Part shown: piece by piece, positions 19,401 through 64,000 of the stretch
Numbering within the stretch: the stretch's first letter is position 1
Layout of the letters: the number at the start of each line of letters is the position of its first letter
Assembly: GCA_963402885.1 (NCBI GenBank)
Contig: OY727098.1
Coordinates: forward strand, 13,564,717-13,628,716
Length of the DNA stretch: 64,000 nt
Source: Antedon bifida
Lineage: Eukaryota > Echinodermata > Crinoidea > Comatulida > Antedonidae
Direction of reading: 5' to 3'
Program-made: the position numbers and the translations under genes
Notes under the pieces: model-generated
What the model saw: only the letters and a program-made list of their open reading frames with translations
What the model was told of the DNA's origin: nothing
The model's database searches: none

Positions 19401-19420
19401 TGTTTATTTTCTTTGTGTTA

Positions 19421-34920: not shown

Positions 34921-34984
34921 CTGACGTGCGCGTGCGCAACGGGATCTCATGTGATCTCAAACGATCACCGTAGCGAAATAAAAT
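34921..34984. repeat. Terminal repeat of DIRS B (right in window)
   Basis: It starts ctgacgtgcgcgtgcgcaac, complementary to the inner part of the left terminal repeat, and ends in the stretch mirrored by the internal complementary region. Confidence 0.85.
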
Positions 34985-35979: not shown

Positions 35980-36330
35980 TGCATAATATGCAAATTAGCT
36001 TCCGCCATTAGATAAAAATAAAAATATTGCCATAACTTTGGATTGGACTGTCCGATTGAAACAAATAAAGTGTTCAAAGGTATATTGTCATGGTCAGTGA
36101 AAAAGATAAACATACTTTTAAATTAATTATTTGATTCAATCATAATATGCAAATTAGTTATCGAAATTGGGTAAAACAGATCAGAATTATGCTAAAACTT
36201 TAGTTTGGATGGTCTGATTCAAACAATTAAATGTTCAGAATTATTAATGACCAATTAACATGATAGCCATACTTTTATTTCAATTCAGTATAATGCTTAT
36301 AATTTACATAATATGCAAATTAGCTCATAA
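35980..36330. repeat. Diverged tandem repeat, about 160-bp period
   Basis: The word ataatatgcaaatta occurs at about 35985, 36145 and 36312. Each copy is associated with related text such as tttggattggactgtccgatt and tttggatggtctgatt. The units share roughly two thirds of bases by eye. The core atgcaaat matches the octamer bound by POU factors, but this could be incidental. Confidence 0.55.
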
Positions 36331-36461
36331 ATAGAAATACCTTTATTCTGGGTATAAACATTAGACTGAAACACCCAATAAGTGAGTAAGGTTTTGGCAG
36401 AAAATATAAATGAACTAGAAGTCATATATCAAAAAGTCAGCAAAAGTAGTATTCATAATAT

Positions 36462-36518
36462 ATTTTATTTCATATACGTTCGCTGTAAACTGAGATCCCG
36501 ACGCGCACGCGCACCCTC
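36462..36518. repeat. Left terminal repeat of DIRS C
   Basis: It begins attttatttcatatacgttc and ends gcgcacgcgcaccctc. The first half is mirrored in the internal complementary region at 40934. The second half is mirrored at 41158 in the right terminal repeat. Confidence 0.85.
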
Positions 36519-40933: not shown

Positions 40934-41058
40934 ATCTCAGTTTACAGCGAACGTATATGAAATAAAATAGGAAGATTAAACGAGACTTACCTGTAAGTTG
41001 AAGTTTGATCACTATTTTATGAATATGTGAGTGAGGTGTAAACTGCCCGCCTCAACCC
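40934..41058. repeat. Internal complementary region of DIRS C
   Basis: Bases 40934-40967 are the reverse complement of the outer left end. Bases 40968-41045 are the reverse complement of the outer right end (about 41185-41261) and look identical. This joined mirror of both ends is the DIRS hallmark. Confidence 0.9.
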
Positions 41059-41157
41059 ACCCCAAGTAAAACAATTATTATTATAGAACAATGCAGGTTA
41101 TCATATATATACTTATCGCTGCAAATTATTACTCTGGACATGTTTGATTTAAAGTAT

Positions 41158-41262
41158 GAGGGTGCGCGTGCGCGTCGGGATCTCAGTTTACACCTCACTC
41201 ACATATTCATAAAATAGTGATCAAACTTCAACTTACAGGTAAGTCTCGTTTAATCTTCCTAT
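41158..41262. repeat. Right terminal repeat of DIRS C
   Basis: It begins gagggtgcgcgtgcgcgtcg, the complement of the inner left repeat, and ends tctcgtttaatcttccta. Confidence 0.85.
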
Positions 41263-41810
41263 TAAACAAGACAGTCATACCCTTAATAGTAGAGCAGTTA
41301 ACGCCATAAAAATAGCCAAGTTGTGCACTTTATTACCAAAGCATGAAACTTGCCACAAAGTTTCTTTGATGTATATAGATTCAAAATATCGGGGGGTGCC
41401 AAGTGTCCAACGTCCGGTATGGCGGCCATCTTGATTTCAAAATGGCCACCATAAAAACAAAAAGTACTCATATCTTGGCAACTATAAACAGTAGAGACTT
41501 GATTCTGGTGTTAAATTGTTCTCAAACCACATATTTCTATTTGCTCTAATGAAAAGTTTCGTCAAAAAATGACCGGAAATAACGTTTCTTCCAGTTTGAC
41601 CTTTGACCTCTTATCTGTATATCTCAGTAACTACTGATTATTTTCAATCGATTTTGGTGTCATTTTGTTCAGAATAGAGACATTTATATTTGTAGTAATG
41701 AAACATTTTCACATAAAATGACTGGAAATACAATTTATAACCTTTGACATATATAAATATGTGAATATACTGTATGTGGTTTACATTGGTATAAATGCAC
41801 CTAATTTTTT

Positions 41811-42492
41811 TACCGAAATAAATTACACGTAATGCAAAAATGACCAGGAATTGTTATTCTGAATTTTTTACTTTTAATGTGATAGGATAGGCGTAAAGTA
41901 TGACAGATCACAGAAACAGCAATCACTGAGCTCATCTATGCCGACTTGTTTGCTAAACTGTGATGTGTCAATCGTTAGATAAAAGTTTTGGTCCTCTCTC
42001 CTTCATCTTTTCTTTTTTTTTTTGTAATGTATTATACCATATGGACAATTGTCTATGCTATTTGGAAATATTTTTGATGTAAAGTAGCATTCTTTCGTTG
42101 GCCTCTTTGATGTTGCATAGACAAGTTCGGAAAGTTCTCATTTTCATGAGTTAAGAGAACACCGTCTTTCAAAGTACTTACTACAAACTTATCCTGCATT
42201 TGTGCAGTAGACCTACTTTTATTAGTCAGAAACTCAGATAAATCTAAAAAAATGTACTCCATTTGTATGGTAATGGGCCTTTGCTGTAAACCATCTGAAT
42301 CCTTTTTCTCTAGTCATCTCAATATAATTATTCAAGTAATCCTCAAATTAGTGACATGGACCTACAATATACTGTTCTGTACAAGACCTTTTTAGGCATC
42401 CACCTGTGGACTTTCACTTTGAAGGTTTTGGTCTCCTAATCATACAAGAAACAATGTCTGATTTAATCAATCAAAGTAGTCTGTCCAGAAGT
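41811..42492. other. Left interior of the long-TIR element
   Basis: This is non-coding sequence between the left arm and the minisatellite. It is A+T-rich with a poly-T near 42010. No gene recognised. Confidence 0.5.
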
Positions 42493-45042
42493 GGGTGTAA
42501 GACCATCCACAGAAAAAGAAGGGGTATAAGACCATCCACAGACAAAGAAGTGAGTGTAAGACCATCCACAAACAAAGAAGGGGGTGTAGGACCGTCCACA
42601 AACAAAGAAGGGGGTGTAGGACCGTCCACAAACAAAGAAGGGGATGTAAGACCGTCCACAAACAAAGAAGGGGGTGTAAGACCATCCACAGACAAAGAAG
42701 GGGGTGTAGGACCGTCCACAAACAAAGAAGGGGGTGTAGGACCGTCCACAAACAAAGAAGGGGATGTAAGACCGTCCACAAACAAAGAAGGGGGTGTAAG
42801 ACCATCCACAGACAAAGAAGGGGGTGTAGGACCATCCACAGACAAAGAAGGGGGTGTAAGACCGTCCACAAACAAAGAAGGGGGTGTAAGACCATCCACA
42901 GACAAAGAAGGGGATGTAAGACCATCCACAGACAAAGAAGGGGTGTAAGACCGTCCACAAACAAAGAAGGGGGTGTAAGACCGTCCACAAACAAAGAAGG
43001 GGGTGTAAGACCATCCACAAACAAAGAAGGGAATGTAGGACCGTCCACAAACAAAGAAGGGGGTGTAAGACCGTCCACAAACAAAGAAGGGGGTGTAAGA
43101 CCGTCCACAAACAAAGAAGGGGGTGTAAGACCATCCACAAACAAAGAAGGGGATGTAAGACCATCCACAAACAAAGAAGGGGGTGTAAGACCGTCCACAA
43201 ACAAAGAAGGGGGTGTAAGACCGTCCACAAACAAAGAAGGGGGTGTAAGACCGTCCACAGACAAAGAAGGGGATGTAAGACCATCCACAGACAAAGAAGG
43301 GGGTATAAGACCATCCACAGACAAAGAAGGGGATGTAAGACCATCCACAGACAAAGAAGGGGATGTAAGACCATCCACAGACAAAGAAGGGGATGTAAGA
43401 CCATCCACAGACAAAGAAGGGGATGTAAGACCGTCCACAGACAAAGAAGGGGGTATAAGACCATCCACAGACAAAGAAGGGGATGTAAGACCATCCACAG
43501 ACAAAGAAGGGGGTGTAAGACCGTCCACAAACAAAGAAGGGGGTGTAAGACCGTCCACAAACAAAGAAGAGGGTGTAAGACCATCCACAGACAAAGAAAG
43601 GGGTGTAAGACCATCCACAGACAAAGAAGGGTGTAGGACCATCCACAGACAAAGAAGGGGGTGTAGAACCGTCCACAGACAAAGAAGGGGGTGTAAGACC
43701 ATCCACTGACAAAGAAAGGGGTATAGGACCACTTACAGACAAAGAAGGGGGTATAAGACCATCCACAGACAAAGAAGGGGATGTAAGACCATCCACAGAC
43801 AAAGAAGGGGGTGTAAGACCATCCACAGACAAAGAAAGGGGTGTAAGACCATCCACAGACAAAGAAGGGTGTAGGACCATCCACAGACAAAGAAGGGGGT
43901 GTAGAACCGTCCACAGACAAAGAAGGGGGTGTAGAACCGTCCACAGACAAAGAAGGGGGTGTAAGACCATCCACTGACAAAGAAAGGGGGTATAGGACCA
44001 CTTACAGACAAAGAAGGGGGTATAAGACCATCCACAGACAAAGAAGGGGATGTAAGACCATCCACAGACAAAGAAGGGGGTATAAGACCATCCACAGAGA
44101 AAGAAGGGGGTGTAAGACCATCCACAGACAAAGAAGGGGTGTAAGATCATCCACACACAAACAAAGGGGTGTAAGACCATCAACACACAAAAAAGGGGTG
44201 TAATACCATCAACAGACAAAGAAAGGGGTGTAATACCACCAACAGACAAAGAAGGGGGTATAAGACCATCCACAGGCACAGAAGGTGGTGTAATACCATC
44301 CACAGACAAAGAAAGGGGTGTAAGACCATCCACAGACAAAGAAGGGGGTGTAGGACCGTCCACAGTCAAAGAAGGGGGTGTAAGACCATCCACAGACAAA
44401 GAAGGGGGTGTAAGACCATCCACACACAAAGAAGGGATTATTAGACCATCTACAGACAAAGAAGGGGGTGTAGGACCATCCACAGACAAAGAAGGGGTGT
44501 AAGACCATCTACAGACAAAGAAAGGGGTGTAAGACCATCCACACACAAAGAAAGGGGTGTAATACTATCAACAGGCAAATAAGGGGGTTTAATACCGTCC
44601 ACAGACAAAGAAGGGGGTGTAAGACCATCCACTGACAAAGAAGGGGGTATAAGACCATCCACAGACAAATAAGGGGGTGTAGGGCCATCCACAGACAAAG
44701 AAGGGGATGTAAGACCACCAACAGACAAAGAAGGGGGTGTAAGACCATCCACACACAAAGAAGGGATTATTAGACCATCTACAGACAAAGAAGGGGGTGT
44801 AGGACCATCCACAGACAAAGAAGGGGTGTAAGACCATCTACAGACAAAGAAAGGGGTGTAAGACCATCCACACACAAAGAAAGGGGTGTAATACCATCAA
44901 CAGACAAATAAAGGGGTGTAATACCATCAACAGACAAAGAAGGAGGTATAAGACCATCCACAGACACAGAAGGGGTATAAGACCGTCCACAGACAAAGAA
45001 AGGGGTTCAAGACCATCCACACACAAAGAAAGGGGTGCTTTG
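42493..45042. repeat. Minisatellite, 30-bp unit, about 85 copies
   Basis: The unit is close to accatccacagacaaagaa followed by gggggtgtaag. The 30-base period is kept almost throughout, with occasional 27- and 29-base units. Variants (ccgtccacaaac, ggggatgtaag, ccacacacaaag) alternate in longer patterns: a 120-base block near 42601 recurs at 42721, one of about 240 bases near 43620 recurs near 43860, and one of about 340 bases near 44400 recurs near 44740. All three - strand frames stay open for long stretches because the unit lacks stops there. These decapeptide repeats (SVDGLTPPSL, FFVCGWSYTP) are not real genes. Confidence 0.97.
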
Positions 45043-47056
45043 TAAGGTCATTAATAATATATTGATATAAACACGATCATCATACTATTCATTGACATTC
45101 AAATACAGTCTATCTCGAAAAGAAGCTCATACTATCACCTTTTCGAGGTTTTACGGTATTCCATAACAATTAACATGTATGTTATTTCATCTGTCAAACT
45201 ATTAAAACTTTTAGCGAATCAGAAGGTGCCAACATCATTGAACTAATAGTACCACCAAGCACAATGTTTACCAATTTTGTACTAAATTAACTAACTAAAC
45301 TAAGTACTATATACAATTTAAGTCCATTAATCATTTAATATAATTACGCCTATCAGGTCAAAGTTCAAAATTAGGTGCATTTAAGACCAACAAAAACCAC
45401 ATACAGTATATTCACATAATTAAAAATAAATAAATAAATGTCAAAGGTCATAAATTGTATTTCCGGTCATTTTATGTGAAAATGTTTTATTACTACAAAT
45501 ATAAATGTATTTGTTCTGAACAAAATGACACCAAAATCGATTGAAAATGACCAGTAGTTACAGAGATATACAAATACGAGGTCAAAGGTCAAACTGAAAG
45601 GAACGTCATTTCCGGTCATTTTTGGACGAAAATTTTCATTAGAGCAAATAGAAATATATAGTTTGTGAACAATTTGAGACCAGAATTAAGTCTCTAATGT
45701 GTATAGTTGCCAAGATATGAACATTTTTTGTTTTTATGGTGGCCATTTTGAAATCAAGATGGCCGCCATACAGGACGTTGGACACTTGGCACCCCCGATA
45801 TTTTGAATCTATATACATTAAAGAAACTTTGTGCCAAGTTTCATGCTTTGGTAATAAAATGCACAGCTCATGTCATTAACTGCTCTACTATAATTAAATT
45901 ACAGTTTATGAATATAATTTACAAACTATGCAAATTACCAATAGACTGGATACACAAATACACAACAAACAAGTGGGGTTTTCGCTGAATAAATGAACCA
46001 TATAAAAAGGTCATCACATCTATGTATGAATATTGTACATCATGAATTTCAGGCTTTACCATACACTGCATCCAGATTGTTAATAGGAATCAGTTATATA
46101 GATCTTAACGTAAACAAAAAGAAGCTTAAAATAAACTCGCAAGAGAGCAACAGAGAATTTGCTGTGGTTTTTGCTCTTCGCCCCAAAAGGCCTGGGTGGT
46201 CAGGTCTAATGCAGGTCATACATCATGGTAATTATCCTGAAAAATCATCGGTGCAATTCCTGCCCATGATAGATTTAAATCCATCTGACATGTCATGTAT
46301 CTTCTCCACACTCTCGTATGTTTGTGAACAAGCTAAGGAATACAATGTCACACCCATTTGATCAACCACTTTGGTGAAAAGCCATGATGATCATCGAATC
46401 AGAGCCAGATTGCAGTTATCTGAAGTCCATTGTCCTGAGACTAGGGGGGGGGGGGTTTACATATGGAAATGAGCTTCTTGGGCTGCATTGGTTACCTTAT
46501 GGCAGGAAGTGATTCTTGAAGTAGCATATGCAGGAAATGCTGTAAAGCATATGCTGAGTGGAAAAGCAATCTCCAGAGCAGTCCGAGGACATCTCTTGGT
46601 TGATGCTGCCCTACATACTATATTACTAGCTAATGTATATAATCTTCCTATATCCACATTTCAACCTGATCAACTACAACACAATCGAGACACGGAAACA
46701 ACCTGTGAGAACGATCAAACAACAGAACTTTCAGAAGAAATGGAAATAGAAGTTGATGCTGATATTATTCCAAACAAACGGCCAGATCAAGATTTGCTCG
46801 AAGCCAGTAAGATTTTGGATAATCTAATAAATGATCCCGACGCTCATATTGACCTTTCCTCTTCAGATGTCCTTACAAGAATTACTCATAGATTGAAAGA
46901 AAAGCGGAACTTACTTAGTGATAAAAGGACTGCCCAACTCTGGTTGCAATATTTGGACAAAAAAATCATAAAAGCTGAACGTATAGGGAATTGGACTTTC
47001 ATCTTTCAGCAGTAAAGGATATGTTACCTTTTTTTGCTGCGGCTGGGCATAACCTG

Positions 47057-48113
47057 TACACGAAATCTGCGTATCTGTACTCCTAATGAGAAGTGTTAAA
47101 GGAGTGGGATCCATTTGGTAGTGAGTCATCACTGCGTAGCATAGTAAGTGATGTTGCTGCTACTGACAATGTAGATGTTGACCAGGCAAGGTCTGAGGGC
47201 CAGCGTATACTTGAATCGATGGTTGGAAAGAACATTGATGAGTTCTTATTCCAAAGAAAAAAAACAAGCAGTCACACTTGGATCCAAAACAGCTGTTGTC
47301 ATTTGCGGAGATCCAGTCCAAGTTGATCCACAATTACTCTTTCAGCGATTAAGTGTTATCGCCACACATGAAGAGGAAGAAGATCCCGCAAATGTATTTA
47401 AATATGAACTTTGCAGTCATCCAACTGCATTATTCGATAATAATTCGATTCCCAAGGAGCCAAATAAGGCGACACTAGCCGATGCCCTTTGGGAGATTGT
47501 AAAGCAGGATCAGACAGACCCCACTAATGATCCACAGTATGTGCTTGATGGTGGTGCCCTCTTTTACGTTTACCATGGTTAAGAGGTCAAACATTTGACA
47601 GTATTTGTCATAAGTATGTATCATATGTGACAAGTCGATATGGAATTCCAACTATTGTATTTGATGGTTACACGAAATCTGCGTATCTGTACTCCTAATG
47701 AGAAGTGTTAAAGGAGTGGGATCCATTTGGTAGTGAGTCATCACTGCGTAGCATAGTAAGTGATGTTGCTGCTACTGACAATGTAGATGTTGACCAGGCA
47801 AGGTCTGAGGGCCAGCGTATACTTGAAGATCCCGCAAATGTATTTAAATATGAACTTTGCAGTCATCCAACTGCATTATTCGATAATAATTCGATTCCCA
47901 AGGAGCCAAATAAGGCGACACTAGCCGATGCCCTTTGGGAGATTGTAAAGCAGGATCAGACAGACCCCACTAATGATCCACAGTATGTGCTTGATGGTGG
48001 TGCCCTCTTTTACGTTTACCATGGTTAAGAGGTCAAACATTTGACAGTATTTGTCATAAGTATGTATCATATGTGACAAGTCGATATGGAATTCCAACTA
48101 TTGTATTTGATGG
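47057..48113 (+). repeat. Internal tandem duplication in copy 1
   Basis: The stretch 47057-47668 is repeated at 47669-48113. The second unit lacks about 166 bases, removed between two cttgaa/gaagaa-type words. Both units carry the same extra taagaggt after YHG, so that change came before the duplication. Confidence 0.9.
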
Positions 48114-48214
48114 TTATGAAGATGGACATGCAACTAAAGATGCTACACACTGCAGACGTACAGGCAGTTCCAAGGGACCAAATGTTTTGTTTACAGGAGA
48201 GACTTCGCTAATTA

Positions 48215-48476
48215 TGGAGTGGAGTTGTGGCTTGGTGGTTATTATTCTTGGCTACCACTCCAAGGGTCCTGGGTTCAAGTCCCGTCACATGTCAGGATTT
48301 TTTCTAAGGACCAAATTACAACTCCACTCCCAAAGACTTGTAATAAGACTTTGTTTATTTAGAGCATCTTGTGTATATATGTTTGTCTTGTGAACCTGAG
48401 GGTCCCTAATGATCAGCAATAGCTGGATGTATCACCCTCATTAAATATGGTTTTAAAAAAAAATAAATAAAATAAA
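48215..48476 (+). mobile_element. tRNA-derived SINE
   Basis: About 260 bases with an A-box-like tgtggcttggtgg (48226-48238) and a good B box gggttcaagtccc (48271-48283) 45 bases on, a tRNA-unrelated body, and an A-rich tail (ttttaaaaaaaaataaataa). The body end gggtccctaatgatcagc recalls L2/CR1-type LINE tails that supply the reverse transcriptase. It interrupts the nuclease part of copy 1 between FTGET and FLTNK. Confidence 0.85.
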
Positions 48477-49166
48477 TTTCTGACCAACAAAGTAAACAAG
48501 CAACGATTTCTTCATTTGCTCAGTTTACACCTTGAAAAGGCAGGTTGTACAACAATTCATGCCAAAGGAGATGCAGATATCCTAATTGTCAAGACAGCAG
48601 TTGAGTCAGCAGACGAGTCAGTGACGATACTGATTTGCTAATCCTGCTGTGCTATTATGGAGATACAATTGAGAAGTACCTCTTTTTATACCAGAAATAA
48701 AGGCCAACACCAAAAAGCACAAGGTATGGAACATAAAGAAAACAGTGATGATCTTGGGGAATCAATTATGTTCCAGACTTCTCTTTGTGCATGCTTTACT
48801 TGGATGCGACACAATGTCGAGAGTATTTGGTATAGGAAAACATGTAGCACTAAAGCAAGTCCAGAACAGTGTTGATTTCCAGCAATTTGCTGACCTGTTT
48901 ACTGAAGAGGGTGCGACAAAAAAAGATATAATTGCAGCAGGAGAGGACTCTCTGATTCACCTCTATAAGGGCAAGTATGGTGAAAGTATAGACGTTCTAC
49001 GGTACAAGCGATTCTGTGAGAAGGTGGCAAAAAGTAGCACATGTGTTGAACCTCAGACACTGCATCTGCAGCTACACAATACCATAGTCTGCGAGTATAT
49101 TTTCAGATACAAACATGGAAAGAGACTGCTGCACAAATGAAAACAGAAGAATAGGGATGGAAGGTA

Positions 49167-49240
49167 TAGATGAGTGGAAATAGACTTTTCAGTCAAACAA
49201 ATTGCAACAGTTTGTTTTTTTGCTGAAACATGCTCAACTA
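49167..49240. repeat. Left TIR of the Academ-like element
   Basis: Complementary to 63697-63779, with one gap of about 12 bases. It lies next to the target word gta at 49164-49166. Confidence 0.9.
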
Positions 49241-49329
49241 TATGTAGATATTATCATATCCAAAATCTACCCTGATCTGCCCATTATAAATTACCTAATT
49301 TGCATAAAATCAAAATGGCTGCCATTTTC

Positions 49330-49710
49330 AACTTTGATCCCAATTATCTCTTAAACCGTAAAGAATTTGGTATAAGAATGTATTAAACACAAATATAAAC
49401 ATGACCCTAATTATTCGGAATAGCACATTTGATTTGACCTTTGACTGGGTCAAAGGTCATTTCAGTATACCTTATTAAAAAACCCTAATTATCTATTAAA
49501 CCATCGAATATTTAGTATAAGAATGTATTAAATACCAATATAAACATGACCATAAACATTCCGTATATGACATTTAATATGTCCTTTGACCTTAGGTCAA
49601 AGTTCATTTCAGTATACCTTATTATAAAAATTCTATGAGTATATATTAAACCATTAAATAGTATAAGCATGTATTAAACACTGATATAAACATGACCATA
49701 ACAATTCTAA
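49330..49710. repeat. Tandem repeat, about 150-bp unit, with DR1-like words
   Basis: Three diverged units share gtataagaatgtattaaa and aatataaacatgacc. Between units lie the inverted pairs tgacctttgac-tgg-gtcaaaggtca (about 49435-49459) and gtcctttgacc-tta-ggtcaaag (about 49573). Non-coding; it lies between the left TIR and the 3' end of the gene. Confidence 0.75.
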
Positions 49711-50006
49711 ATAATTCAATCTGGGTTTTGAACTTTTTTTTAACATTAATTTTACATATTAATATATTGTACTATCAATTATTCAATATTGGGCACATTG
49801 GCATAATATTATTTTAAGCTCAGACACTAAAGATAAATCATATTAACAAATTAAAATTTCGAATGTTGCATGAACTCTTACTTGTTATGTGTGGCTGTAT
49901 CGAATTTGTAGTAAAACAACTTAATAAAGGAAATTTGAAAGTTTATAAACGTCCGTCGGTGTACAAAACTAACTTTCTTCTAATTCGATCAAAGTCTGTA
50001 GCATTG

Positions 50007-52187
50007 TTATAGATAGATATCACTATCTCCAATAATATCAGTATTGTCTTCCAACAAAATATTTGTACAGAAGCCATCCTGGCATTCGCCACAAGAGTTT
50101 GTACAGTAGAGGCCATTTTTTTTGCAAGAACATTGTAAGGTATCGCAATATCCCTTACATTTGCACCTTATTACCTTCAATAGTTCATGAGGTGCAGGGC
50201 TAGAATCCATAGTAATAGGCATCAACTTTCCATTCTGTAATTTCCAACCCCACTCTTCTGGCTTTAGGTGGTTGTTCCCCATCCACACTTGTGTTTGATA
50301 GTAAACTCGGTACGAATGATATTTTGCAGAGTCTGATGTAGGTGGAATGCTTTGTACCTCTATGCTACGAATGCTTTTTTTTCATTGAATTTCTTATGGC
50401 GCAGGTCATTAATGCTTTCTTCACATCCACCATACAAGTGAACAAGAGCTCTTTCACCAGCTTTCTTAATTGTTTCGTGATTCGAATATCTAGAAAGAAA
50501 TGGTTCTCCATGTTGCATAAGTAACTCTTTTTTCTTTAAAACTATCCCTTTCCCGATGCTGTATAGACGAGAGGTGGTATCACATCCACAAAGAGCGTGA
50601 AGAAATGGCAAAAATCTGCAAAACTGATCTCCAAGTTTAACACTAGTAACCTTTATGTCCCATAAAGGATGTTTTGAATTGGCTTTTTCAGATTTCATGA
50701 ACAACCCAATAGTGTTCGATGACACAGTAAAACAAGGATGTCTGTGTCCTCAGCTATTACATAAGTTGGTCTACATACAGCTAAATCAACGGCTGTTTTT
50801 GCAATAAGAACATCTGCATCACCTTCTGCATGAATTGTTTGAATGCCATTTTTCAACATTTTATCTGATAACATGTTTATGAAATTTTGCTTGTTGTTGT
50901 TGTTGTTTGTAAGGAATTTCTTCTTGTCTAATTTAAATGGTAGATTTGGTGAAAGTGCTATTAATGGTGCTGAAATACCCTTTGATCGAATCTGATGTGT
51001 GATACTCTTTGTGGATGTGTTGTTGTATCCATCAAAGATTACAACGGGATTAGAAAACTGTTTGACGTAGACTACATACTTTTCCATAATTTGATCATAT
51101 GTATCTCCTTTTTCCATTCCATTCGTTGAATCAATGAGCCTCCATCGAAAGCATAGCAATGATCTTCCTCATTTAATATAGTAGGTGAGGTTGGTTGACA
51201 GTGTTTTGATATTGCATTTGAAAGCTGTGGCTTGTTAGGTGAATGTAGAATTCCTTTGCTATTGAATAGAGATGGTGGATAGATGGAAAGTTCATAATTC
51301 AGCACCTCACCAAGATTTAATTCTGTATTATTTGCTATAACAAGTAATCGCTGAAACAGAAGTTGGGGGTCCACTGGAATATCTTCCCCTTGAGCAACCA
51401 CTTTTTCTCCCATGACTTTAACCTGATCTTTCTTGCGAAATACATAATTTGAAACTGTTTCTCCTTCCATTTTCTTCATAATTGCTTTACCAATTTCTTC
51501 AGCTTTATGTACATTTGAAGAACAAGACGATATACCAGTGGAAATATCATACAAATTTTCATTGTCATCAAATGGATCATGGCATTGCAGGAATTCAAAG
51601 ATGCACTCAGTGTCTTGATTATCTTGTTTACGTCTACTAGGTGTCATGTGCTTGTAGTTTTCATGTGTTCTTTGATACATGCTTTCCATTTCTTTGTTTA
51701 TATCGGCAAATGCTGGCATTGAGAGGAGCCATCTTGTCCGTTGAGTCTCGTCCATTCCTCTCCCATGTGTTAAACCTCCTTTGCTTTTTAATGATCTCAT
51801 CAGAACCTGTTCAATGATGAGATCTGTTGGGAGGCCAGCCCAGAAGCGGTCACTTCTTCTCACGAAAAACAATCCAGAAATAAACTTTGAATACACGTCT
51901 GGGTTACTTTCTTCAAGTTGAAACATATCTTGCAAAAATAGATGAACCGATTTTGCGTAATTGTTGTGACCACTAGCAGCAAAAAATGGCAGCATGTCCT
52001 GTAGAGACTTCAGATAGAGCATAAATTGACCAGTGCGCTGTGCTCGTAAGGCACATCGCAAGATACCTATCATCTTCATGTACTGGATCCATAACTGCCC
52101 AGTTGGCCTTTTCTGCAAGTATTTGGTTTGCTGCAGCGTCTCCTGTATAGATTGTATTTTGCTATCTGTTTTGCATACAACTGTTTC
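50007..52187 (-). pseudogene. Academ-like transposase, C-terminal half (nuclease, GCDT, CXC)
   Basis: Read on the - strand from 52187: VVCKTDSKIQSIQET, RPTGQLWIQYMKMI, GGLTHGRGMDETQRTRW, DPQLLFQRLLVI, then a PIN/FEN1-like nuclease domain with VVIFDGYN, AEGDADVLIAKTAV and VIAEDTDILVLL, then LHALCGCDTTSRLYSIGKG (position of the helix-hairpin-helix of FEN1-type enzymes), then WMGNNHLKPEEWGWKL. The end is a tesmin/TSO1-like CXC domain with IRCKCKGYC, QCSCKKNGLYC and CGECQDGFC. Frame changes lie near 51110, 50710 and 50370, the last in a run of eight T. The acidic pattern EGDAD plus EDTD fits a metal-dependent nuclease. The frame across the Bel/Pao site is the same as in the N-terminal half. Confidence 0.85.
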
Positions 52188-53595
52188 TGTTAGATCTTTC
52201 CCATGCAGCGCGCCCCCAGCGTTTTAAATTGTATTTGTGAGGTAGAACGAACTTTGACTTCGCGTCGGAAGAGCGCAACTAGCATCAGTCGGCGATGCAC
52301 GTGAGTTTATTGATGGTAGAAAATGCCAGATTTGCGAGCGTAAATGCCAAATTACACATTGTGTTCAGTTGCAGATGATTACTAGTGAGTTAAAGTTTAT
52401 AAATAAGTAGTTTTAGGATTCTTTACGAATCGATTCGCTTAGTAATTAAAGATTTAATAAGGTGTTGACATGTTGATTTGTATATTCGCCATGATGAGTC
52501 CATTGTTTCAATGGAATGTTAACATTGAGCATAATTGTATACGATTCTAAACAGGCATTTAACTAATGTATTACTGTTTCCAACATTTTATAGACATGCC
52601 TAGACTATACACATGTTATTACTGTTCATCGACGTGAAGATATTATATGATTTAAGCCTAGAATTGTTAAGCTATTCCATGTATTGAATATCGTATTTGA
52701 TCTTACCGCTGTAGCATGGTACGCTGACTGATTTCTCAGCTCATGAATATTCATTAGCTATGCAGGGAAGTTCTATTGTATTGTGATGCATTTGGCCATT
52801 GGTTAATGATTGGTTAACTAAATTACTGGATCCCTGCTTATCTTAATTATTCAAGATATTTCTTGTGGATGAATAAAAGCATTCTTTGTGTCGTTTAAGT
52901 AAACTAAACTATGTGCGTGTTAATTAGAGAAGGATTTAGACATGTTTTATCATGGTTTCATGATCAGTTTAATTGACATTTCCTATGCATTTATCATGTG
53001 TTGTGTTATATTTTAGACAAATTTCTATCAATATATTTATGTTGATTATTGTTACAGAATTGAGATAATGTTTGAAAGGAGAATATTGACATAAGATTTG
53101 AGGCTTAGAGCGGTCATATTCACGTAAGGATTTGTTCTATGCATATTATTGATTGACATGTTAATTAATTGTTTGTATTTGCTGTAATTCAGATGATGAT
53201 ACTGTTCACATTGTTTGCCATTTTTTAATGTATTACTATGATTAGTACGGTAACTGAAGAAGTTAAGTAATACGGAATTTAATATAATAATTGAGCGTAA
53301 GCATTGAATGATGACGATAATGAAGGAATTTATGTTAGACGATTATAACATGTGCTTTGTGACGATTTGTATGATTCCTTTACTTCAGTTTTATTTTATG
53401 GTAACTTGTATTTATACTTTTGTATTTAGTCACCGAACGAACTAACAAAAGGTAGTCAGACAGACACGGTTGGAACATAATAAATTGAAGATTGTTTAAC
53501 TGATGGTCATAGTGTTGCCTTGTTCGCGTTTGTGTGACTTGACTAAACGACGCCCTCTACATTCCAAACTTGCTCCGAGCCCAAGAGCAGTTACA
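52188..53595 (+). repeat. 5' LTR of the Bel/Pao element
   Basis: 1408 bp, TG...CA type, starting tgttagatctttcccatg. An AATAAA occurs inside (atgaataaaagcattc). The target word gtttc lies just before it at 52183-52187. Confidence 0.95.
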
Positions 53596-56500
53596 GTGAG
53601 TTAATGACAACTAGCAGTGAGTGACGACGTCGACAACATCGTGTAAAGCTACTGTGGAAAAGTACTGGTTCTTCAACGACTGGAAGAACATCTGAGCACA
53701 ACATGGCTACTCAATATAGTAGACAGCGGAAAAACTGTAAAGGCGCGATGACGCGAGCAGTGAACCTGTGGAAGTCTGCCCTTGACAAAGAGGGAGTAAA
53801 CATCAAAACCGTTAAGGATCTCTTCCAGAAAGTGACAACTACATTTGAAGTCGTGGAGTCCGCGCATCGAAGCTTGTCCGACGAAATCGAAGACGACGAG
53901 GCCTACGCGCAAGAGGAGAAATGGATGGAAGAAGTCCAGGGTACTTTCCTGGAAGTAAGACTTGCAACCGAGAGCTTTCTGAAGGATAAGGTTAGTCCAT
54001 CCAGTGATGGGAGTGCGGTAGTTGTACCTACCACTACTTCAGGTAACCATGATAATATTGATGGTGATAATGTTAGTAACATAAGTGTGTCATCAAATCG
54101 TTTAAGTGATTTCAAAGAAATTAAGTTAGCACTAGAACTGCCTAAGGCAGAATATCTCATGAGAATCCTGCCAGTGATCGTGACAGCGAAAAATGGAAAT
54201 CAGGTAAGCACCTTGGCTTTGTTAGATCACGGATCAGACACAAGCCTGTGTTCTGAAGACCTCAGATGTGCATTAGGTGCTAGAGGCGAGAGACTAAAGT
54301 ACACGTCATCCACCATCAATGGAGACTTGGAGAACGAAGGTTGGAAGTTTGAGTTAGGAGTCAAAGGTAAGTTTGAATGCCAAGAAATGAATGTCGAATT
54401 TCTGACTGTAGCTAAAATACCAGCACTAATGGAGAGTTTCCCTACTGTTGAGGAACTAGGTAAGTGGGAACATTTAAGGTCTTTTCCATGGGAGAATCCG
54501 AAGTCCGCTAAAGTCGACCTCTTAATCGGAGCAGACTCACCTCAAGCGTTTTGGGTGTTGGATGAAAGAAAGGGAAGACCTAAAGACCCTTATGGCGTAA
54601 AGACACCTCTTGGATGGTCGATTATGGGGCCAGGAGGACACGGTACCAAGAAGAGTTATTTTAACCGAATCCACGTCAGTAACCAGCGGCTTCTTGATGA
54701 GATTCAACGTTCATGGGCCATCGAAAATAGTGGACTGTCAGACGAGCAAGACTCAAAGGAAGACATCAGAGCGCATGAAATTATCCGCTCAACTATAAAG
54801 AAGATGGAAGATAATCATTATGAGATGGGTCTGCTTTGGAGAAGAGAAGACCACAATCTACCCAACAACAAATCGATGGCGTTGTCAAGACTTAGCTCGC
54901 TAAAGAGAAGACTAGTATCTGACGAGACCATGCACTCTAAATATACCGAAGTTATTGAGGGTTACATCAAGAAGGGATACGCGGAGCCAGTGCTCAACGA
55001 AGGAAATGCCGGTAATGTCCGGTTGTGCATCCTCATAAAAGGAAAGTTCGAGTCGTATATGACTGCGCTGCCAAGTTCGCTGGGACATCCTTGAATGATC
55101 ATCTACTTAAAGGGCCAGGGTTTATGAACGATCTGTTAGGCGTGCTTATTCGATTCCGACAGAGGAAAGTAGCCATAGTTGCCGATATCGAAGCCATGTT
55201 CCATCAAGTAAGGATAATCGACTCCGACAGAGATGTGTTAAGATTCCTGTGGTGGGAGAACGGCAACCTAGATGCTCAGCCTAAAGAGTACCGGATGTGC
55301 GTGCACTTGTTTGGTGCAACCTCATCGCCATGCTGCTCTAGTAAAGCCTTGAAGCAGACAGCAGATGACAACGAGAAGCAGAATGAAGATGAAGTTGGTA
55401 AGATGGCCATAGAGACCATACGTACTGGATTTTATGTTGACGATTGTCTCAGCTCTGTTGAAAGTATAGATGTTGCGAAGCACTTGGTTCAGAGGCTCTC
55501 TGGTATTCTTAGTGAAGGTGGCTTCAGACTGACAAAATGGTTAAGCAATAACAGAGACGTGCTCGATAGCATAGACGAATCTGAACGAGCTCCATCAGTG
55601 TCGCTCTCTCTCGATGAGTTACCTACGGAACGGACCCTTGGTGTCTGTTGGGATGCCGGAAGCGACAGTTTTATTTTTCAGCTTACTCCCAAAGACAAAC
55701 CGATGACCAGAAGAGGACTGCTGTCAGTTACCAGTTCTGTATTTGACCCCTTAGGTATAGCTGCCCCATTTGTTTTATTAGCAAGGTCTCTTCTTCAAGA
55801 AGTTTGTAGGAGAGGTGCTGATTGGGATCAACCTTTAACTGAAGACGAGAAGAAGACATGGAGTCAATGGCTCGACCGTACATCTATTCTATCACAGGTC
55901 AGCGTTCCTCGGTGGGTAAAACTTGATATAACTACTGCTGTGCAAATGCATATCTTCTGTGACGCGTCCGAAAAGGGGTATGCTGCAGTGGCCTATTTTC
56001 GTATCGAACCAGACGGTAAGAAGCCTACAGTTGAATTCATCATTGGTAGAGCTAGAGTTACACCGTTGAAACTTGTAACTATTCCCAGATTAGAACTGAT
56101 GGCCGCAGTACTAGCCGCAACCCTCGACAGTACCATTCGAAGAGAGCTTTCTTATTCCATTAACGAGACCGTCTACTGGAGCGATTCTATGATTGTCCTC
56201 AGTTACATCAGAAATGAAAACCGTCGCTACAAAACCTTTGTAGCTAATAGAGTATCTAAGATACTTAGCGAATCCAGCAAACACCAATGGAGACACGTGC
56301 CAACCAAGGAGAATCCCGCTGACGAAGGTTCACGGGGTACTTATGAATTGGGTAAGTGGTTGACAGGTCCTGACTTTCTGTACAAAGATGAAGCCTACTG
56401 GCCTGTGTCGAAATTTGTAGACAGTGATCAACCTGACTCCTGATCCGGAAGTGAAGAAACCAGTGGTTGTAGTAAACCAGATCCAGACCTGTGAAAACAG

Positions 56501-59106
56501 TTTCATAGCAACATTGATAGGTAAATATTCATCTTGGACGAAGCAGATACGTGTCCTTGGGTGAGTATTACGATTTGTAAGATCCCTTAGAGCCAAGGTG
56601 AAACATCAACCCGTTGCAACTAACAACATGCTCGTATCCGAACTGCATATGAATCTCTTGGTGCAAATTTTGCAACCAAACAGTGATTTTTAATATGTAC
56701 CTATTGAGCTGTTTATCTACTTATAGGTTCATACCAAGTTCATGCAACCCAAGTCTTGTCATCATCCATTATATAGGAGGGGGGTCAACCATTATGACTA
56801 CAACTAATTTCCACAATTATTGATTACATGTTTTAACCAAAGAAATTAAAATGACATAAACTAGTATAGTATGAACATTTCCAGACTTCGTAATAATTAC
56901 CATCTAATAATTAAACAGGTCACAGAAAGATAAACATAACCATTACCCGAGTGATAAATGGTAGATCCCAGCTCGCTGGCATTCAAACATAGGTATCTTA
57001 ATTTTGCAATTGTGAATATAAAAAACGACATCTAGAACTAAATAACACCTAATAATTGTTCCTTATATATCAAACATTAGAATGATATAAGAATTAAAAT
57101 GCTACTTACAAATTATATAATGAAAAATTAACCCCAAACTTAGCTACAATCCAACGGTCTGTCAAGTGAAGGCTTGATAACACAGGCAAACCCTATTTGA
57201 ATTTTGCCGCGACTTTGAGGATTTTTTAGATTTTTTCAAAATAGATTTTGCTATTTTGACACAGTCTATTTTAAGCCAATGCTCATAAGAAAAGTATGTA
57301 AGGAATCTATGAATATTCAGCTTTCTTTTAAGAAACTAACCAAAATGATTGATGACAATGACATACAACTGATCTTAAATTGCAAATAAAACACTGTGGT
57401 ACTTTAGAAAATAGGTAAAAAATTGACCTCACACTGTCAGCGGGCAATGCCATGGTGAGTTTTAAAACGTAAAATGACACATACTTTTTTTAACTTTACA
57501 ATTTCAAACATATATTACAATGTTCAGTATTGTCTACAGTTTATTTTGAGCTACTAACCAAAAGAATCCGATTTATAATAGCCGAGATATTTAGGTGGGA
57601 ACATGAAAATCAAGTGTTTTGTAGAATATCACGGTGCGAAATCAGTGGTATTCATGTCCCAGTGGAGTGTGTTGAGACCATTTAGCTATTTCGTTGCTCA
57701 AGAGATTCATATGGAGAAAGTGAGACGATGATCTTATCATGTAAACAGAGACACTCATTTCCAAACTGGAATACAGACAAGAGAATTAAAGACTTAAACC
57801 CAGTACTCTTAGGTGGTCTACTCAGAGTTGGAGGTAGACTGGATTATGCCAGAATTGACTACGATGCCCAGCACCCTATAATATTAGCTAACGACGGAGA
57901 ATCGGTGAGAACGCTAGTTATGTACTATCATCAAAGTGTTGGACATAATGGATGGTCCGCAACGTTGAACGCACTCCGCGAACGGTTTTGGATCCTGAAA
58001 GGTAGGTCGGTAGTAAAAGGTATCTTAAGACACTGTGTTATATGTAAAAGACAAAATGCACGACGAGGTGAACAACAAATGGCGCCTCTACCAGAAGAAC
58101 GTGTTACCGCAGATAAACCACCTTTTACTTTCACTGGGATTGACTACTTTGGACCCATAGATGTCAGACAAGGTCGTTCGACCGTGAAACGATATAAGTG
58201 CATCTTCACATGTCTCTTGACAAGAGCCGTCCACCTTGAAGTTGCTGACAGTTTAAGCACAGACTCGTTTATAAACGCCTACAGACGATTTGTAGCAAGA
58301 CGTGGCGAGCCTTCTAAAATATTTAGCGACAACGTTGTTGGAGGCGAAAGGGAACTTCGAAATGCTCTAGCTGAAATGAACCAAAGCATTGTAGAAGAAT
58401 TTCTTCACACCAAAGGGGTTGAGTGGCACTTTAACCCACCCTCAGCCAGTCATTTCGGAGGCGTATGGGAACGCCTAATAAGGTCAGTGAGAAAAACATT
58501 ATATAGTGTTCTAAGACAACAAACAGTTACTAATGATGTACTACAAACTGTTCTAGCTGAGGTTGAATCCATATTAAATTCTAGACCTCTTACAGACCTG
58601 TCACCAGAGGCTTACGATGATGAGCCCTTAACCCCTAATCATCTCCTTTTGATGAGAAAGGGACCTGCTGCGCCGATAGGTAGAATTGAAGCCTATGGTA
58701 AAAGACGTTGGCGTCAGGTTCAATATTTAGCTAATATTTTTTGGACCCGTTGGAAGAAGGAGTACCTCCCTCTTCTCCAAAAGAGACACAAATGGACGAC
58801 GCCTAGACAGAATGTGGAGGTATGTGACATTGTACTTTTAGTAGATGAAACCATGCCGAGAGGTAGATGGCCTATGGGCAAAGTTATCTCAGTCTACAAA
58901 GGCAAAGATGGAAAGGTACGTAGCGTTGATGTCAAGATTGCAGGTGGAGTTTTGAAACGTCCTATCGCAAAGCTTTGCATAATATACAGAGGATCCATCG
59001 CTAAAGATGTGAACCATTGTTAATTACACATTGTTAATTAGTTAAGATTGTTTGTGGAATAAAGTTCTGAAATCCTGTGTTGTGTGTTTGATTTCAGCGT
59101 GGGGAG

Positions 59107-60514
59107 TGTTAGATCTTTCCCATGCAGCGCGCCCCCAGCGTTTTAAATTGTATTTGTGAGGTAGAACGAACTTTGACTTCGCGTCGGAAGAGCGCAACTA
59201 GCATCAGTCGGCGATGCACGTGGGTTTATTGATGGTAGAAAATGCCAGATTTGCGAGCGTAAATGCCAAATTACACATTGTGTTCAGTTGCAGATGATTA
59301 CTAGTGAGTTAAAGTTTATAAATAAGTAGTTTTAGGATTCTTTACGAATCGATTCGCTTAGTAATTAAAGATTTAATAAGGTGTTGACATGTTGATTTGT
59401 ATATTCGCCATGATGAGTCCATTGTTTCAATGGAATGTTAACATTGAGCATAATTGTATACGATTCTAAACAGGCATTTAACTAATGTATTACTGTTTCC
59501 AACATTTTATAGACATGCCTAGACTATACACATGTTATTACTGTTCATCGACGTGAAGATATTATATGATTTAAGCCTAGAATTGTTAAGCTATTCCATG
59601 TATTGAATATCGTATTTGATCTTACCGCTGTAGCATGGTACGCTGACTGATTTCTCAGCTCATGAATATTCATTAGCTATGCAGGGAAGTTCTATTGTAT
59701 TGTGATGCATTTGGCCATTGGTTAATGATTGGTTAACTAAATTACTGGATCCCTGCTTATCTTAATTATTCAAGATATTTCTTGTGGATGAATAAAAGCA
59801 TTCTTTGTGTCGTTTAAGTAAACTAAACTATGTGCGTGTTAATTAGAGAAGGATTTAGACATGTTTTATCATGGTTTCATGATCAGTTTAATTGACATTT
59901 CCTATGCATTTATCATGTGTTGTGTTATATTTTAGACAAATTTCTATCAATATATTTATGTTGATTATTGTTACAGAATTGAGATAATGTTTGAAAGGAG
60001 AATATTGACATAAGATTTGAGGCTTAGAGCGGTCATATTCACGTAAGGATTTGTTCTATGCATATTATTGATTGACATGTTAATTAATTGTTTGTATTTG
60101 CTGTAATTCAGATGATGATACTGTTCACATTGTTTGCCATTTTTTAATGTATTACTATGATTAGTACGGTAACTGAAGAAGTTAAGTAATACGGAATTTA
60201 ATATAATAATTGAGCGTAAGCATTGAATGATGACGATAATGAAGGAATTTATGTTAGACGATTATAACATGTGCTTTGTGACGATTTGTATGATTCCTTT
60301 ACTTCAGTTTTATTTTATGGTAACTTGTATTTATACTTTTGTATTTAGTCACCGAACGAACTAACAAAAGGTAGTCAGACAGACACGGTTGGAACATAAT
60401 AAATTGAAGATTGTTTAACTGATGGTCATAGTGTTGCCTTGTTCGCGTTTGTGTGACTTGACTAAACGATGCCCTCTACATTCCAAACTTGCTCCGAGCC
60501 CAAGAGCAGTTACA
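59107..60514 (+). repeat. 3' LTR of the Bel/Pao element
   Basis: Same length as the 5' LTR, with two differences seen. A purine-rich gtggggag directly precedes it. The target word gtttc follows at 60515-60519. Confidence 0.95.
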
Positions 60515-62654
60515 GTTTCACTTGATGTTAAAACTTCGTCAAATTTTTCTAAAGCATAGTCCAGTAGTTGCGGGTCATCATTATCATTCAGCATCTTCTT
60601 TACCAGAAGCCCATTGAGAGCTCCATCAATCAAGAAGTTACCTCGTATTGCTCTCTCATATGCTTTTCCCATGAGCATGTGTGTAACTGTGTTGCCGGCA
60701 TATACTAGTTCCAATAATGATCGTAATCCACTCGACCTCATGATGTGGCCAATGCTGCCTAAGAAGCTCATAAGTGTATGAAACCCTCCAAGATTTAGAA
60801 TCATACCTTTCAGCTCTTCTTCATGAGTAGTTATTTGTTTTGCTTTAAACCAAAGTGGCTGGTCAAAGGTTATAACAGGTGTAACTCCATGTTTTAGGCA
60901 TTGGTTATTTACGAATAATAGAGTTGAATACACGCAGCTCATATTTGTGGGATCCAAGTCTACCATTGGCAGGAAATGAAAAGAAGACTTTCCTGGATGA
61001 GCACATCTCGTCACAGCCTGCATAAATCCAGACCAACTAGGTCTATCTGTTCGATACGGAAATGCTATTTTCCACAATGTATCAAGGTGCTCTCGGTCAT
61101 CTTCCTTGTCAATCATTGGTAATGCATTATATATCATGTTATCGCCAGCTTTTCCCAATTTTCGAAATCTTTTAATTTCAACGCTCTTTGGTTTGTCAAT
61201 GTTACGAGAAGCACTACGAGGAACTTGGCGTTTGGAGCTTATTTCTGGGGTAGCTGTAAACATTAGACCCATGCCATGGTAAGTGTTCTTTCTATTTAGT
61301 GTTACAATATTGTGGTCTACATTGTCTGCAATCACATGACAAAAGTGACCATCTAAATTAGAAAACGGGTCGCTCTGATCATTAGCAGCACATGCTTTGA
61401 AATGGCATGCCTCATCATAAGACAAGCAAAATCCTTTGTTGTTCAGATTTTCAATAAGTTCTTTAGAGCCCCATTTCCAATGCAACTGCATAGTTAATCC
61501 AAACGGGATGGGTGCTACAATACTTCTTGGTCTAGTCTGCTGCATGATACTCTGTCCAATTTCTGCAATTTTTATTTCATTAGAAGTTTTATTCCCTCTA
61601 AAAATATCACTTAAAAACATTCTGAGTGACATTGGAAGATATGCTAAGTTACGTTCTATATTTCCGAGACCTTGAAGATCAGGATATATGTCTCGACTAT
61701 CCTTTACCTGATCGATGTCTGCTTTAATTAATGCTGCAGCAGCTCTTAAAATGTTTTTCTTACGTACTTCTTCATTTTCTTCTTGTTTGTGATTTACATA
61801 AAATTCATTCAATATTTTTGCAGCTGATTTACGAATTGTAATAATATTTGAACGGTTACCAACTTGAGTAATCATCATGGAATCTCCAAAATATTCATAG
61901 TTTTACCTTCATGTAGATATTGCTATATGGCTCTGAACACAAGCATGTAATTCTATCAACTAGATCAGATATTGTAGTCTGCTCTTCCTCATTTTCCAAA
62001 AACTCTTCTAGTACTAGTAAAAAAAGCCTGTTCACGAGTGGCATCAGGTTTTCGCCCAGGGCGAGTTTGTTTGTCTCCACCAGAATTAGTGTCGTACTTG
62101 TTAGGAATGTTTCTGCCAGTTCTGAAATTGACGCTACAAACTTGATGATATACAGCATCAACGGCTGGTAAGTCTTGAGCAAAAACAACACAAGATCGCA
62201 TATCATCTGCCCATTTATCTCCTCGGATCTTACAGGAATTTAAAATAGAATCTTGACAATTCCAAGAAGCTACTCTGTATACATTTTCAAGACGATTTCC
62301 ATCTTCATCAACTACCTTACTTTCACAATAAAGACAATGGCTAGAAAAATTGAATATTGACTGCTTTGATCTCAAAGATGGTGTCTCAACAATAAATTCT
62401 TCCGCCTTTCTTTTTTTAGCGACAGCAATGTTTCTCTTGTTGGTAAATGCTTTTCTGCAGTCTGAGTGGAGGACCTGACCGGCTACTACTTGCAATGATG
62501 TTCCTCTTTCTTTACTAGCTTCATTTACTGTCCTTGCTGCTTTTTGAGTAATGTTTACTGTTCTTTTACCATCATCATCAGTCATACTCTTATCACATAA
62601 TGGACATAAATCTGTCTCAGAATGGTCTTCTTGGTTTTGCATAGGCCTACTCAT
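60515..62654 (-). pseudogene. Academ-like transposase, N-terminal half (zinc fingers, catalytic core)
   Basis: Starts at the methionine at 62654 (MSRPMQNQEDHSETDLCPLC). Two Cys/His clusters follow: CPLC with VLHSDC, and CLYC with VYHQVC. A frame change lies in a seven-base run near 62025, before LLVLEEFLENEEEQTTI, and a second near 61905, before EYFGDSMMITQ. From 61878 the frame is open to the insertion point. It carries IVAPIPFGLTMQLHWKWGS, FLPMVDLDPTNMSCVYST, VITFDQPLWFKA, LGGFHTLMSFLGSIGHI and GKAYERAIRGNFLIDGAL. The aspartates in MVDLD and TFDQP are my best candidates for the first two acidic residues of a DDE-type site. Host sequence ends at TSSET, where the Bel/Pao element entered. Confidence 0.82.
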
Positions 62655-63696
62655 AGTCCTGTAAGTTAAAACAATTCAAATACTTATTTTCCCTTCCTTA
62701 TAATTTGTTTTCTTGCAAACTATATTGTATAAGAAAAGATAAAGAAAGGTCTTTGGTTCTTTTGGTCATTAGCTCTAAAATTAGATTCAAGCTAGTCTAA
62801 GCCCAAGTTGAACTACATAGGCCTAAGCTGACCATGCCTAAACCATCACTAGGCCTATCTTGCTTAGGCTCGTGCCGCCTAGGCCTAACTGACTTAGGCT
62901 ATGCTGCCTAGGCCTAACTGACTTAGGCTATGCTGCCTAGGCCTAACTGACTAGGCTATGCTGCCTAGGCCTAATTGACTTAGGCTATGCTGCCTAAGCC
63001 TAACTGACTTAGGCTATGCTGCCTAGGCCTAACTGACTTAGGCTCATGCCGCCTAGGCCTAACTGACTTAGGCTATGCTGCCTAGGCTAGGCCTAACTGA
63101 CTTAGGCTCATGCCGCCTAGGCCTAACTGACTTAGGCTATGCTGCCTAGGCCTAACTGACTTAGGCTCATGCCGCCTAGGCCTATGCCTAACTGACTTAG
63201 GATATGCCACCTAGGCCTACACACGGCCTAGGTTTTATATAAATACTGATGTTTAGAACTACTGTTGATTGATATTCAGAAACTCTGGAAACTTACTTGA
63301 AGGAATTAGTATTAAGAAATACTAGATTCTGTATGTACTTTCTTCATGTCATTCATTTTTCCTGGGAAAACTTTCAGTCAATCAGGATCTTTTGTTTTGC
63401 TTGGAATTATGGGATTGTTATTTTTATTTTTTTTATTCTGGAACATTCTTCATTTTATCATAATAGAAGTAATGTTAATAATAACCAGTATTATTTTTTA
63501 AGTAGTAGTGATATTTTGTTATGCTTTAAAAGCATAAAACGGTACAATTGTGGATGTCGGCCATATTGGATTTCAAAATGGCTACTTTAGCAAAAATAAA
63601 AGTGACATAAATGGATTCTTTGGTATTGAAAACATAGGTATAGACCCTAAAATCAACATGTTTAGCTTTGTATTACCTGATTTATAAGCATTTAAT
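62655..63696. other. 5' region of the Academ-like gene, non-coding
   Basis: Lies between the gene's start (62654, - strand) and the right TIR. It holds the taggcct minisatellite at 62871-63230 and otherwise A+T-rich sequence. The open frame at 63297-63590 shows no recognisable domain. A promoter for the - strand gene should lie here but none is obvious. Confidence 0.5.
62871..63230. repeat. Minisatellite, about 29-30-bp unit, taggcctaactgacttaggc
   Basis: About 12 units alternate between endings tatgctgcc and tcatgccgcc. The array lies upstream of the - strand gene, inside the Academ-like element. Each unit contains the palindromic word taggccta. Confidence 0.92.
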
Positions 63697-63779
63697 GATT
63701 GAACATGATTCATCAAAAAAACAAACTGTTGCAATTTGTTTGACTCAACGCCTACTTTTCATCTATTTCCACTCATCTA
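63697..63779. repeat. Right TIR of the Academ-like element
   Basis: Reverse complement of 49167-49240 with a 12-base gap, ending ctatttccactcatcta directly before gta. Confidence 0.9.
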
Positions 63780-63782
63780 GTA

Positions 63783-64000
63783 ACTAATGGACAACTGCTG
63801 CCATTACAAACACATCTCCCCGCTGCACGTGAAAAGTTGATCAAGATAATCATATGTAACTGAAAAACTGGTTGCAGTACTAGCAGATGCACTTGTAAAC
63901 GATATTCAATTAGTTGTACATGGATATGTGGGGTGTGCAAAGGTTCCAGTTGCACAAACTCTTCTTCGGTAGATATAGATGATGTCAATGATTATGATTG
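63783..64000 (+). pseudogene. CXC-domain end of copy 1, displaced by the insertion
   Basis: The frame continues that of 49163: TNGQLLPLQTHLPAAREKLI, matching NGKLMPITMDSSPAPHELLK in the other copy. Then come IIICN, a TGA where a cysteine codon is expected, KTGCSTSRCTCKRYSISC and ICGVCKGSSCTN. The spaced cysteines are those of a tesmin/TSO1-like CXC domain. An acidic tail (SVDIDDVNDYD) runs off the window edge, as EDNTDIIGDSD does in the other copy. Lying 14.6 kb from the rest of its gene, it defines both ends of the inserted element. Confidence 0.82.

What the first reader, a model, noticed from the sequence alone, without database searches (positions are those of the whole stretch)
49164..63782. 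A giant multidomain gene family shown to be transposon cargo by self-insertion
The two ends tagatgagtggaaatag / ctatttccactcatcta, the 3-bp word gta on both sides, and the exact return of the interrupted frame (GWK-V-TNGQLLPL) together show that 49167-63779 is one inserted element. Its only own gene belongs to the same family as the gene it interrupted. So the family with TFDQP core, EGDAD/EDTD nuclease, HALCGCDTTS and a CXC end, often listed in invertebrates as uncharacterised protein, is here carried by a TIR DNA transposon. The closest known type I can name is Academ with an XPG-type nuclease. That assignment is from memory of the superfamily (3-4-bp duplications, nuclease domain).
Basis: partly seen in the sequence, partly recalled or inferred. 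Interest (0 to 1): 0.93.

Follow-up and report, generated by a model that had tools for sequence, protein, structure and literature searches.

The report
Academ-like DNA transposon inside a relative
A decayed 6.3-kb animal DNA transposon, most likely of the known Academ type, jumped into an older broken copy of a related transposon gene and was later split itself by a retrotransposon; this is ordinary layered mobile DNA.

Summary
A perfect 17-bp inverted repeat plus a 50-bp, 92% block sits at 49167 and 63779, flanked by GTA on both sides. Of 12 joints tried, removing 49167-63782 aligns the interrupted frame best to its relative. The 14,613-bp span is not one element: it is a 6,281-bp terminal-inverted-repeat (TIR) transposon split by a BEL/Pao retrotransposon at 52188-60514 (5-bp duplication GTTTC). 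The only gene seen runs on the minus strand with about five frame changes. It has a DUF6589-like part (E=1.5e-5, under the curated cut-off), a FEN1/XPG-like stretch and a cysteine-rich end. The interrupted + strand copy is colinear, 27-57% identical per piece, and broken: an old relative, not a working host gene. The gene is most simply the element's own transposase gene, not cargo. The published AcademX lineage (nuclease, 3-4-bp duplications; PMC10045372) fits best: ends and duplication are met; nuclease and transposase core are supported but inconclusive. No Academ sequence or whole genome was on hand, so membership is inferred. Known kind; low interest.

The parts
49164..49166 (.). left target-site duplication GTA
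49167..49237 (+). left terminal inverted repeat: 17 bp perfect plus subterminal 50-bp block
49363..49701 (.). 2.3 copies of a 145-bp tandem repeat in the left non-coding end
50007..52187 (-). 3' half of the transposase gene (DUF6589-like part, FEN1/XPG-like stretch, cysteine-rich end), three frame changes
52183..52187 (.). GTTTC target duplication of the nested LTR element (second copy at 60515-60519)
52188..60514 (+). nested BEL/Pao LTR retrotransposon; LTRs 52188-53595 and 59107-60514 (ends set by TG...CA and GTTTC; the BLAST match runs 2 bases further, 1,410 columns, 99.86%, no gaps)
   Evidence: Peptidase_A17 E=2.8e-47, DUF5641 E=6.5e-32, Integrase_H2C2 E=1.1e-11
60515..62654 (-). 5' half of the transposase gene (N-terminal Cys-containing part; TFDQP motif), two frame changes
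62849..63219 (.). 29/59-bp tandem repeats (CCTAGGCCTAACTGACTTAGG) in the right non-coding end
63699..63779 (-). right terminal inverted repeat
63780..63782 (.). right target-site duplication GTA
46140..49166 (+). interrupted, decayed copy of the same family, colinear pieces; no match found for residues 83-237 of the piece 51075-52181
63783..63986 (+). continuation of the interrupted copy (Cys-rich end, with a stop)

Best explanation
The span is an old, decayed DNA transposon, most likely of the AcademX lineage of the Academ superfamily. It was 6.28 kb long with terminal inverted repeats and a 3-bp (GTA) target duplication, and carried one large transposase gene. Inferred mechanism: the protein bound the inverted-repeat and subterminal blocks, its DUF6589-like core (Academ is counted among DDD/E transposases in the literature) and its FEN1/XPG-like nuclease cut and processed the ends, and the element was pasted into a staggered 3-bp cut. 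Its target here was a broken older relative. Later a BEL/Pao retrotransposon landed in the transposase gene. Shown: ends, target duplication, frame restoration, relation of the two copies, nesting order. Inferred: Academ membership, catalysis, cut-and-paste.
For: TIRs and GTA. Frame best at the exact joint, 1 of 12 offsets tried. Taking out the BEL element with one GTTTC leaves the transposase frame unshifted. Relation of the two copies: tblastn E down to 2e-29, colinear. DUF6589 E=1.5e-5, 24.3 bits, curated cut-off 27. FEN1: unforced local alignment in which FDG/FDG, EGDAD/SEAEA, EDTD/EDMD and GCD/GSD line up in order, reached by 1 of 2,000 shuffles; the global score also by 1 of 2,000. The single-frame nuclease piece alone had z=4.6, 0 of 500 shuffles, against z from -1.5 to 1.7 for the 8 ORFs of other elements and GH3. 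Literature: AcademX has a nuclease and 3-4-bp duplications, AcademH a helicase and 9-10 bp (PMC10045372 passage). Curated bivalve Academ elements average 5,565 bp (PMC10294476 passage).
Against: No Academ sequence was available to compare with (Kojima 2020 is not held). Pfam, NCBIfam and PDB sequence searches show no XPG, PIN or FEN1 entry at the limits used (E<=1; E<=10). hhalign of the two-copy nuclease profile against FEN1 gave only 36 columns, probability 2.8%, P=0.016. The first acidic residue of FEN1 (recalled) is not matched by the DGG of this protein in the alignments. In one search the first-half piece p2, which is not the nuclease part, also scored z=3.5 (1 of 500), so that control is not clean; pieces p1, p3 and p5 scored 0.65, 0.34 and 1.82. 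The AlphaFold models are poor (pLDDT 43.7 and 51.0), and Foldseek of the first (nuclease piece) has a best E of 0.9 and no FEN1 among the 50 matches listed of 66. Only one copy of the element was seen.
Confidence: 0.8

Rival explanations
1. A TIR transposon of another or undescribed superfamily with 3-bp duplications (for example a PIF/Harbinger-, EnSpm- or KDZ-like one) whose transposase happens to have an XPG-like nuclease.
For: Ends and duplication length alone do not name a superfamily; DUF6589 is under the curated cut-off; no Academ reference could be compared.
Against: No named transposase family of Pfam at E<=1 for the 10 pieces scanned, 6 of the inserted gene and 4 of the interrupted copy (the short piece 61898-62239 was not scanned). 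The combination of nuclease and 3-bp duplication is what is printed for AcademX.
Confidence: 0.12
2. A host gene family captured as cargo by a non-autonomous transposon, which then inserted into the resident host gene of that family.
For: The two copies are of one family, the inserted one in opposite orientation, and the interrupted copy shows no ends of its own in the window.
Against: It is the only gene seen in the element, with a transposase-like and a nuclease-like part; the interrupted copy is itself decayed and partial; Academ elements are reported to bear a nuclease.
Confidence: 0.04
3. Chance inverted repeat or assembly join rather than an insertion.
For: One copy only; no reads to inspect; the nested BEL element's coding part is also spread over three ORFs, which leaves some room for base errors.
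Against: 17-bp perfect plus 50-bp 92% repeats, 3-bp duplication and restored frame all agree. The two LTRs of the nested element agree with no gaps over 1,410 columns.
Confidence: 0.02

Closest known systems
AcademX lineage of the Academ DNA transposon superfamily (Kapitonov and Jurka 2010; Kojima 2020; neither read, seen only as cited in PMC4455052 and PMC10045372)
   Same: TIRs, 3-bp target duplication, nuclease-like part, no significant helicase hit in the pieces scanned, size near the 5.6-kb mean given for bivalve Academ elements
   Different: No sequence-level comparison was possible; this copy is broken and has a retrotransposon inside it
FEN1/XPG nucleases
   Same: Order of acidic motifs FDG, EGDAD, EDTD and GCDTTS on unforced alignment to human FEN1
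   Different: Not reached by Pfam, NCBIfam or PDB sequence searches; hhalign weak
AcademH
   Same: Same superfamily by the literature
   Different: AcademH has a helicase and 9-10-bp duplications; here 3 bp and no significant helicase hit

Membership tests
Academ / AcademX | terminal inverted repeats | tested here: met
Academ / AcademX | 3-4-bp target-site duplication (AcademX) | tested here: met
   GTA on both sides; one copy only
Academ / AcademX | nuclease domain instead of helicase | tested here: inconclusive
   pairwise match to FEN1 with motifs in order but no profile or fold match and weak hhalign; no significant helicase hit in the pieces scanned
Academ / AcademX | DDD/E transposase domain | tested here: inconclusive
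   DUF6589 E=1.5e-5, 24.3 bits versus cut-off 27; that DUF6589 is a transposase core is inference; catalytic residues not identified
Academ / AcademX | sequence homology to Academ transposases | not testable with these tools
   Repbase and Kojima 2020 not held
Academ / AcademX | repeated copies with the same ends in the genome | not testable with these tools
   no genome held for the window; only one copy in the window
AcademH | 9-10-bp duplication and helicase | tested here: not met
   3-bp duplication; no significant helicase hit
BEL/Pao (nested element) | LTRs, short target duplication, Pao-type protease/RT/integrase | tested here: met
   (RVT_1 itself below its cut-off)
Pfam TCR / CXC domain | match to the Pfam model | tested here: not met
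   no TCR hit at E<=1 for piece 50010-50381 nor at E<=10 for its Cys-rich end; Cys-rich by eye only

The most novel reading that the evidence does not exclude
The element chooses relatives as targets: nuclease-bearing Academ elements nest into older copies of their own family by some sequence or chromatin preference, which would limit damage to the host.
Probability: 0.04. Interest if true: 0.5.

Novelty: new member of a known kind. Interest (0 to 1): 0.2.

Why it matters
It gives a clear case, with an internal frame ruler, that a protein of the invertebrate 'HALxGCDTTS' kind, often listed as uncharacterised (recalled, no call), is the gene of a TIR element. It also suggests that this motif lines up with the GSD motif of FEN1. 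It would help annotation but does not change what is known of Academ elements.

Tried and rejected
Searches for relatives gave none that I accept. The HALxGCDTT pattern in viral contigs gave 2 stretches and in genome contigs 7; none of the 9 shows the family beyond the motif itself (best tblastn E=0.003 over 22 residues around the motif). Piece 51075-52181 in viral contigs (six peptide patterns) and in phages by tblastn at E<=1: none. Terminal 18-mer and subterminal 30-mer, exact, in viral contigs: none.

A search for natural FEN1 relatives to build a FEN1 profile failed: one stretch matched a pattern but was not a relative, one motif hit (L010) was not FEN1, and PF00867 gave no match in L006's genome although the control rang in 4 of 14 genomes.

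Structure route: two AlphaFold jobs on shallow window-only alignments gave low confidence; Foldseek of the nuclease model gave noise. I take this as no evidence either way.

Literature: 7 paper searches; passages of PMC10045372, PMC10799480, PMC9587614, PMC4455052 and PMC10294476 seen, no paper read whole. Kojima 2020 and PMC3093488 (Yuan and Wessler 2011) are not held. A search for HALTGCD, DUF6589 or 'CXC domain transposon' found 0 papers.

Considered and rejected: a programmed frameshift (the changes between DGG and FDG in the two copies lie at different bases); long-read assembly error as the main cause of the frame changes (LTR copies agree with no gaps; not settled, since the BEL coding part is also in three ORFs); the 41287-45890 element as a relative by its ends (first 11 bases differ at four places, Repbase rule allows one). 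Short introns in place of some of the first two frame changes were not tested. The two halves of the gene either side of the BEL element were searched apart, so a DUF6589 match spanning both was not tested.

Full report
What is there. The ends at 49167 and 63779 share a perfect 17-bp inverted repeat, followed after a short unequal stretch by a 50-bp block that is 92% complementary. GTA lies on each side. The local alignment score of the two ends is 87; the best of 3,000 random places in the window, those within 120 bp of the ends left out, is 31. The whole span is 14,613 bp.

The nested retrotransposon. A direct repeat of 1,410 matching columns (2 mismatches, no gaps) starts at 52188 and 59107. 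With TG...CA ends the LTRs are 52188-53595 and 59107-60514, flanked by GTTTC at 52183-52187 and 60515-60519. ORFs between them match Pao peptidase (E=2.8e-47), DUF5641 (6.5e-32), Integrase_H2C2 (1.1e-11) and, below its cut-off, RVT_1, so it is BEL/Pao. Its coding part lies in three large ORFs. Taking it out with one GTTTC leaves the transposon gene in the same frame. The TIR element was thus 6,281 bp and is older than the BEL insertion.

The element's gene. It runs on the minus strand from about 62654 to 50007. Pieces in different frames show about five frame changes; short introns were not tested as an alternative for the first two. Pfam finds a DUF6589-like part in the second half (E=7.8e-5 for 51075-52181; 1.5e-5 and 24.3 bits for 51590-52181, cut-off 27). 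No XPG, PIN or TCR model is found. An unforced local alignment to human FEN1 (typed, checked) puts FDG on FDG, EGDAD on SEAEA, EDTD on EDMD, and GCDTTS on GSDYCE; the DGG of this protein does not fall on FEN1's first acidic residue. One of 2,000 shuffles reaches the score. hhalign of a two-copy profile against FEN1 is weak (36 columns, P=0.016, probability 2.8%). In one search, 13 proteins were compared with FEN1: the single-frame nuclease piece gives z=4.6 (0 of 500 shuffles); the 8 from BEL, LINE, DIRS and GH3 give z between -1.5 and 1.7; the other pieces of the gene give 0.65 (p1), 3.46 (p2), 0.34 (p3) and 1.82 (p5). The p2 value warns against over-reading the test. Fold prediction was too poor to help.

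The interrupted copy. tblastn of the pieces finds colinear matches on the + strand from 46140 to 49166 and then 63780-63986, 27-57% identical per piece. It has stops, frame changes, a missing middle, and a local duplication at 47057-48116. No second match to the N-terminal pieces or to the first 265 residues of piece 60520-61902 was found anywhere in the window at E<=1e-3; a looser look at 30000-46200 gave nothing better than E=0.013. It is most simply an older, broken copy of a related transposon. Its own ends were not found: its 3' end lies beyond the window.

The joint. Of 12 joint offsets tried, the four in-frame ones align residues 15-116 of the C-terminal piece in one stretch. The one that removes the element plus one GTA scores best, 80.9 bits against 75.9-76.6; the eight others reach 47.0-48.5.

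What it is. PMC10045372 (passage), citing Kojima 2020, states that AcademX makes 3- or 4-bp and AcademH 9- or 10-bp duplications, and ties this to the nuclease and the helicase they encode. Repbase lists Academ as a superfamily (PMC4455052), and PMC9587614 counts it among those with a DDD/E transposase. Bivalve Academ elements average 5,565 bp (PMC10294476). The element here agrees with the ends and duplication, and its nuclease and transposase core are supported without being settled. No Academ sequence could be compared, so the name is a strong inference, not a test.

How it works, most likely. The transposase binds the inverted repeats and subterminal blocks, cuts the element out using the transposase core with help of the FEN1-like nuclease, and joins it at a 3-bp stagger. 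All of the catalysis is inferred from the family.

Verdict. A real nested insertion, with a clear order of events, of a known kind of transposon into a relative; useful for annotation, of low surprise.

Noticed in passing
41287-45890: A 4.6-kb element with about 520-bp terminal inverted repeats (471 identities, 40 mismatches, 24 gaps), TAA on both sides, more than half of it an 85-copy 30-bp tandem repeat; looks like a non-autonomous DNA transposon.
   Followed up: partly
30775-34743 (-) and 36494-40414 (+): Two probable DIRS-like retroelements in opposite orientation: reverse transcriptase and (below cut-off) Dam-like matches in both, a tyrosine-recombinase N-terminal domain match in the second, with inverted-repeat arms near 30-35 and 36-41 kb.
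   Followed up: partly
22611-23789 (+): GH3-domain protein (Pfam E=5.5e-61), the one likely host gene among the ORFs scanned.
   Followed up: no
13691-19485 (-): LINE-type reverse transcriptase and endonuclease ORFs, two RVT_1 matches one after the other.
   Followed up: no
47057-48116: Local duplication (292 and 159 nt at 100%) inside the decayed interrupted copy.
   Followed up: no
49195-49217 and 63719-63741: The subterminal block holds an inner inverted repeat AAACAAA...TTTGTTT at both ends, a possible transposase binding site (read by eye).
   Followed up: no
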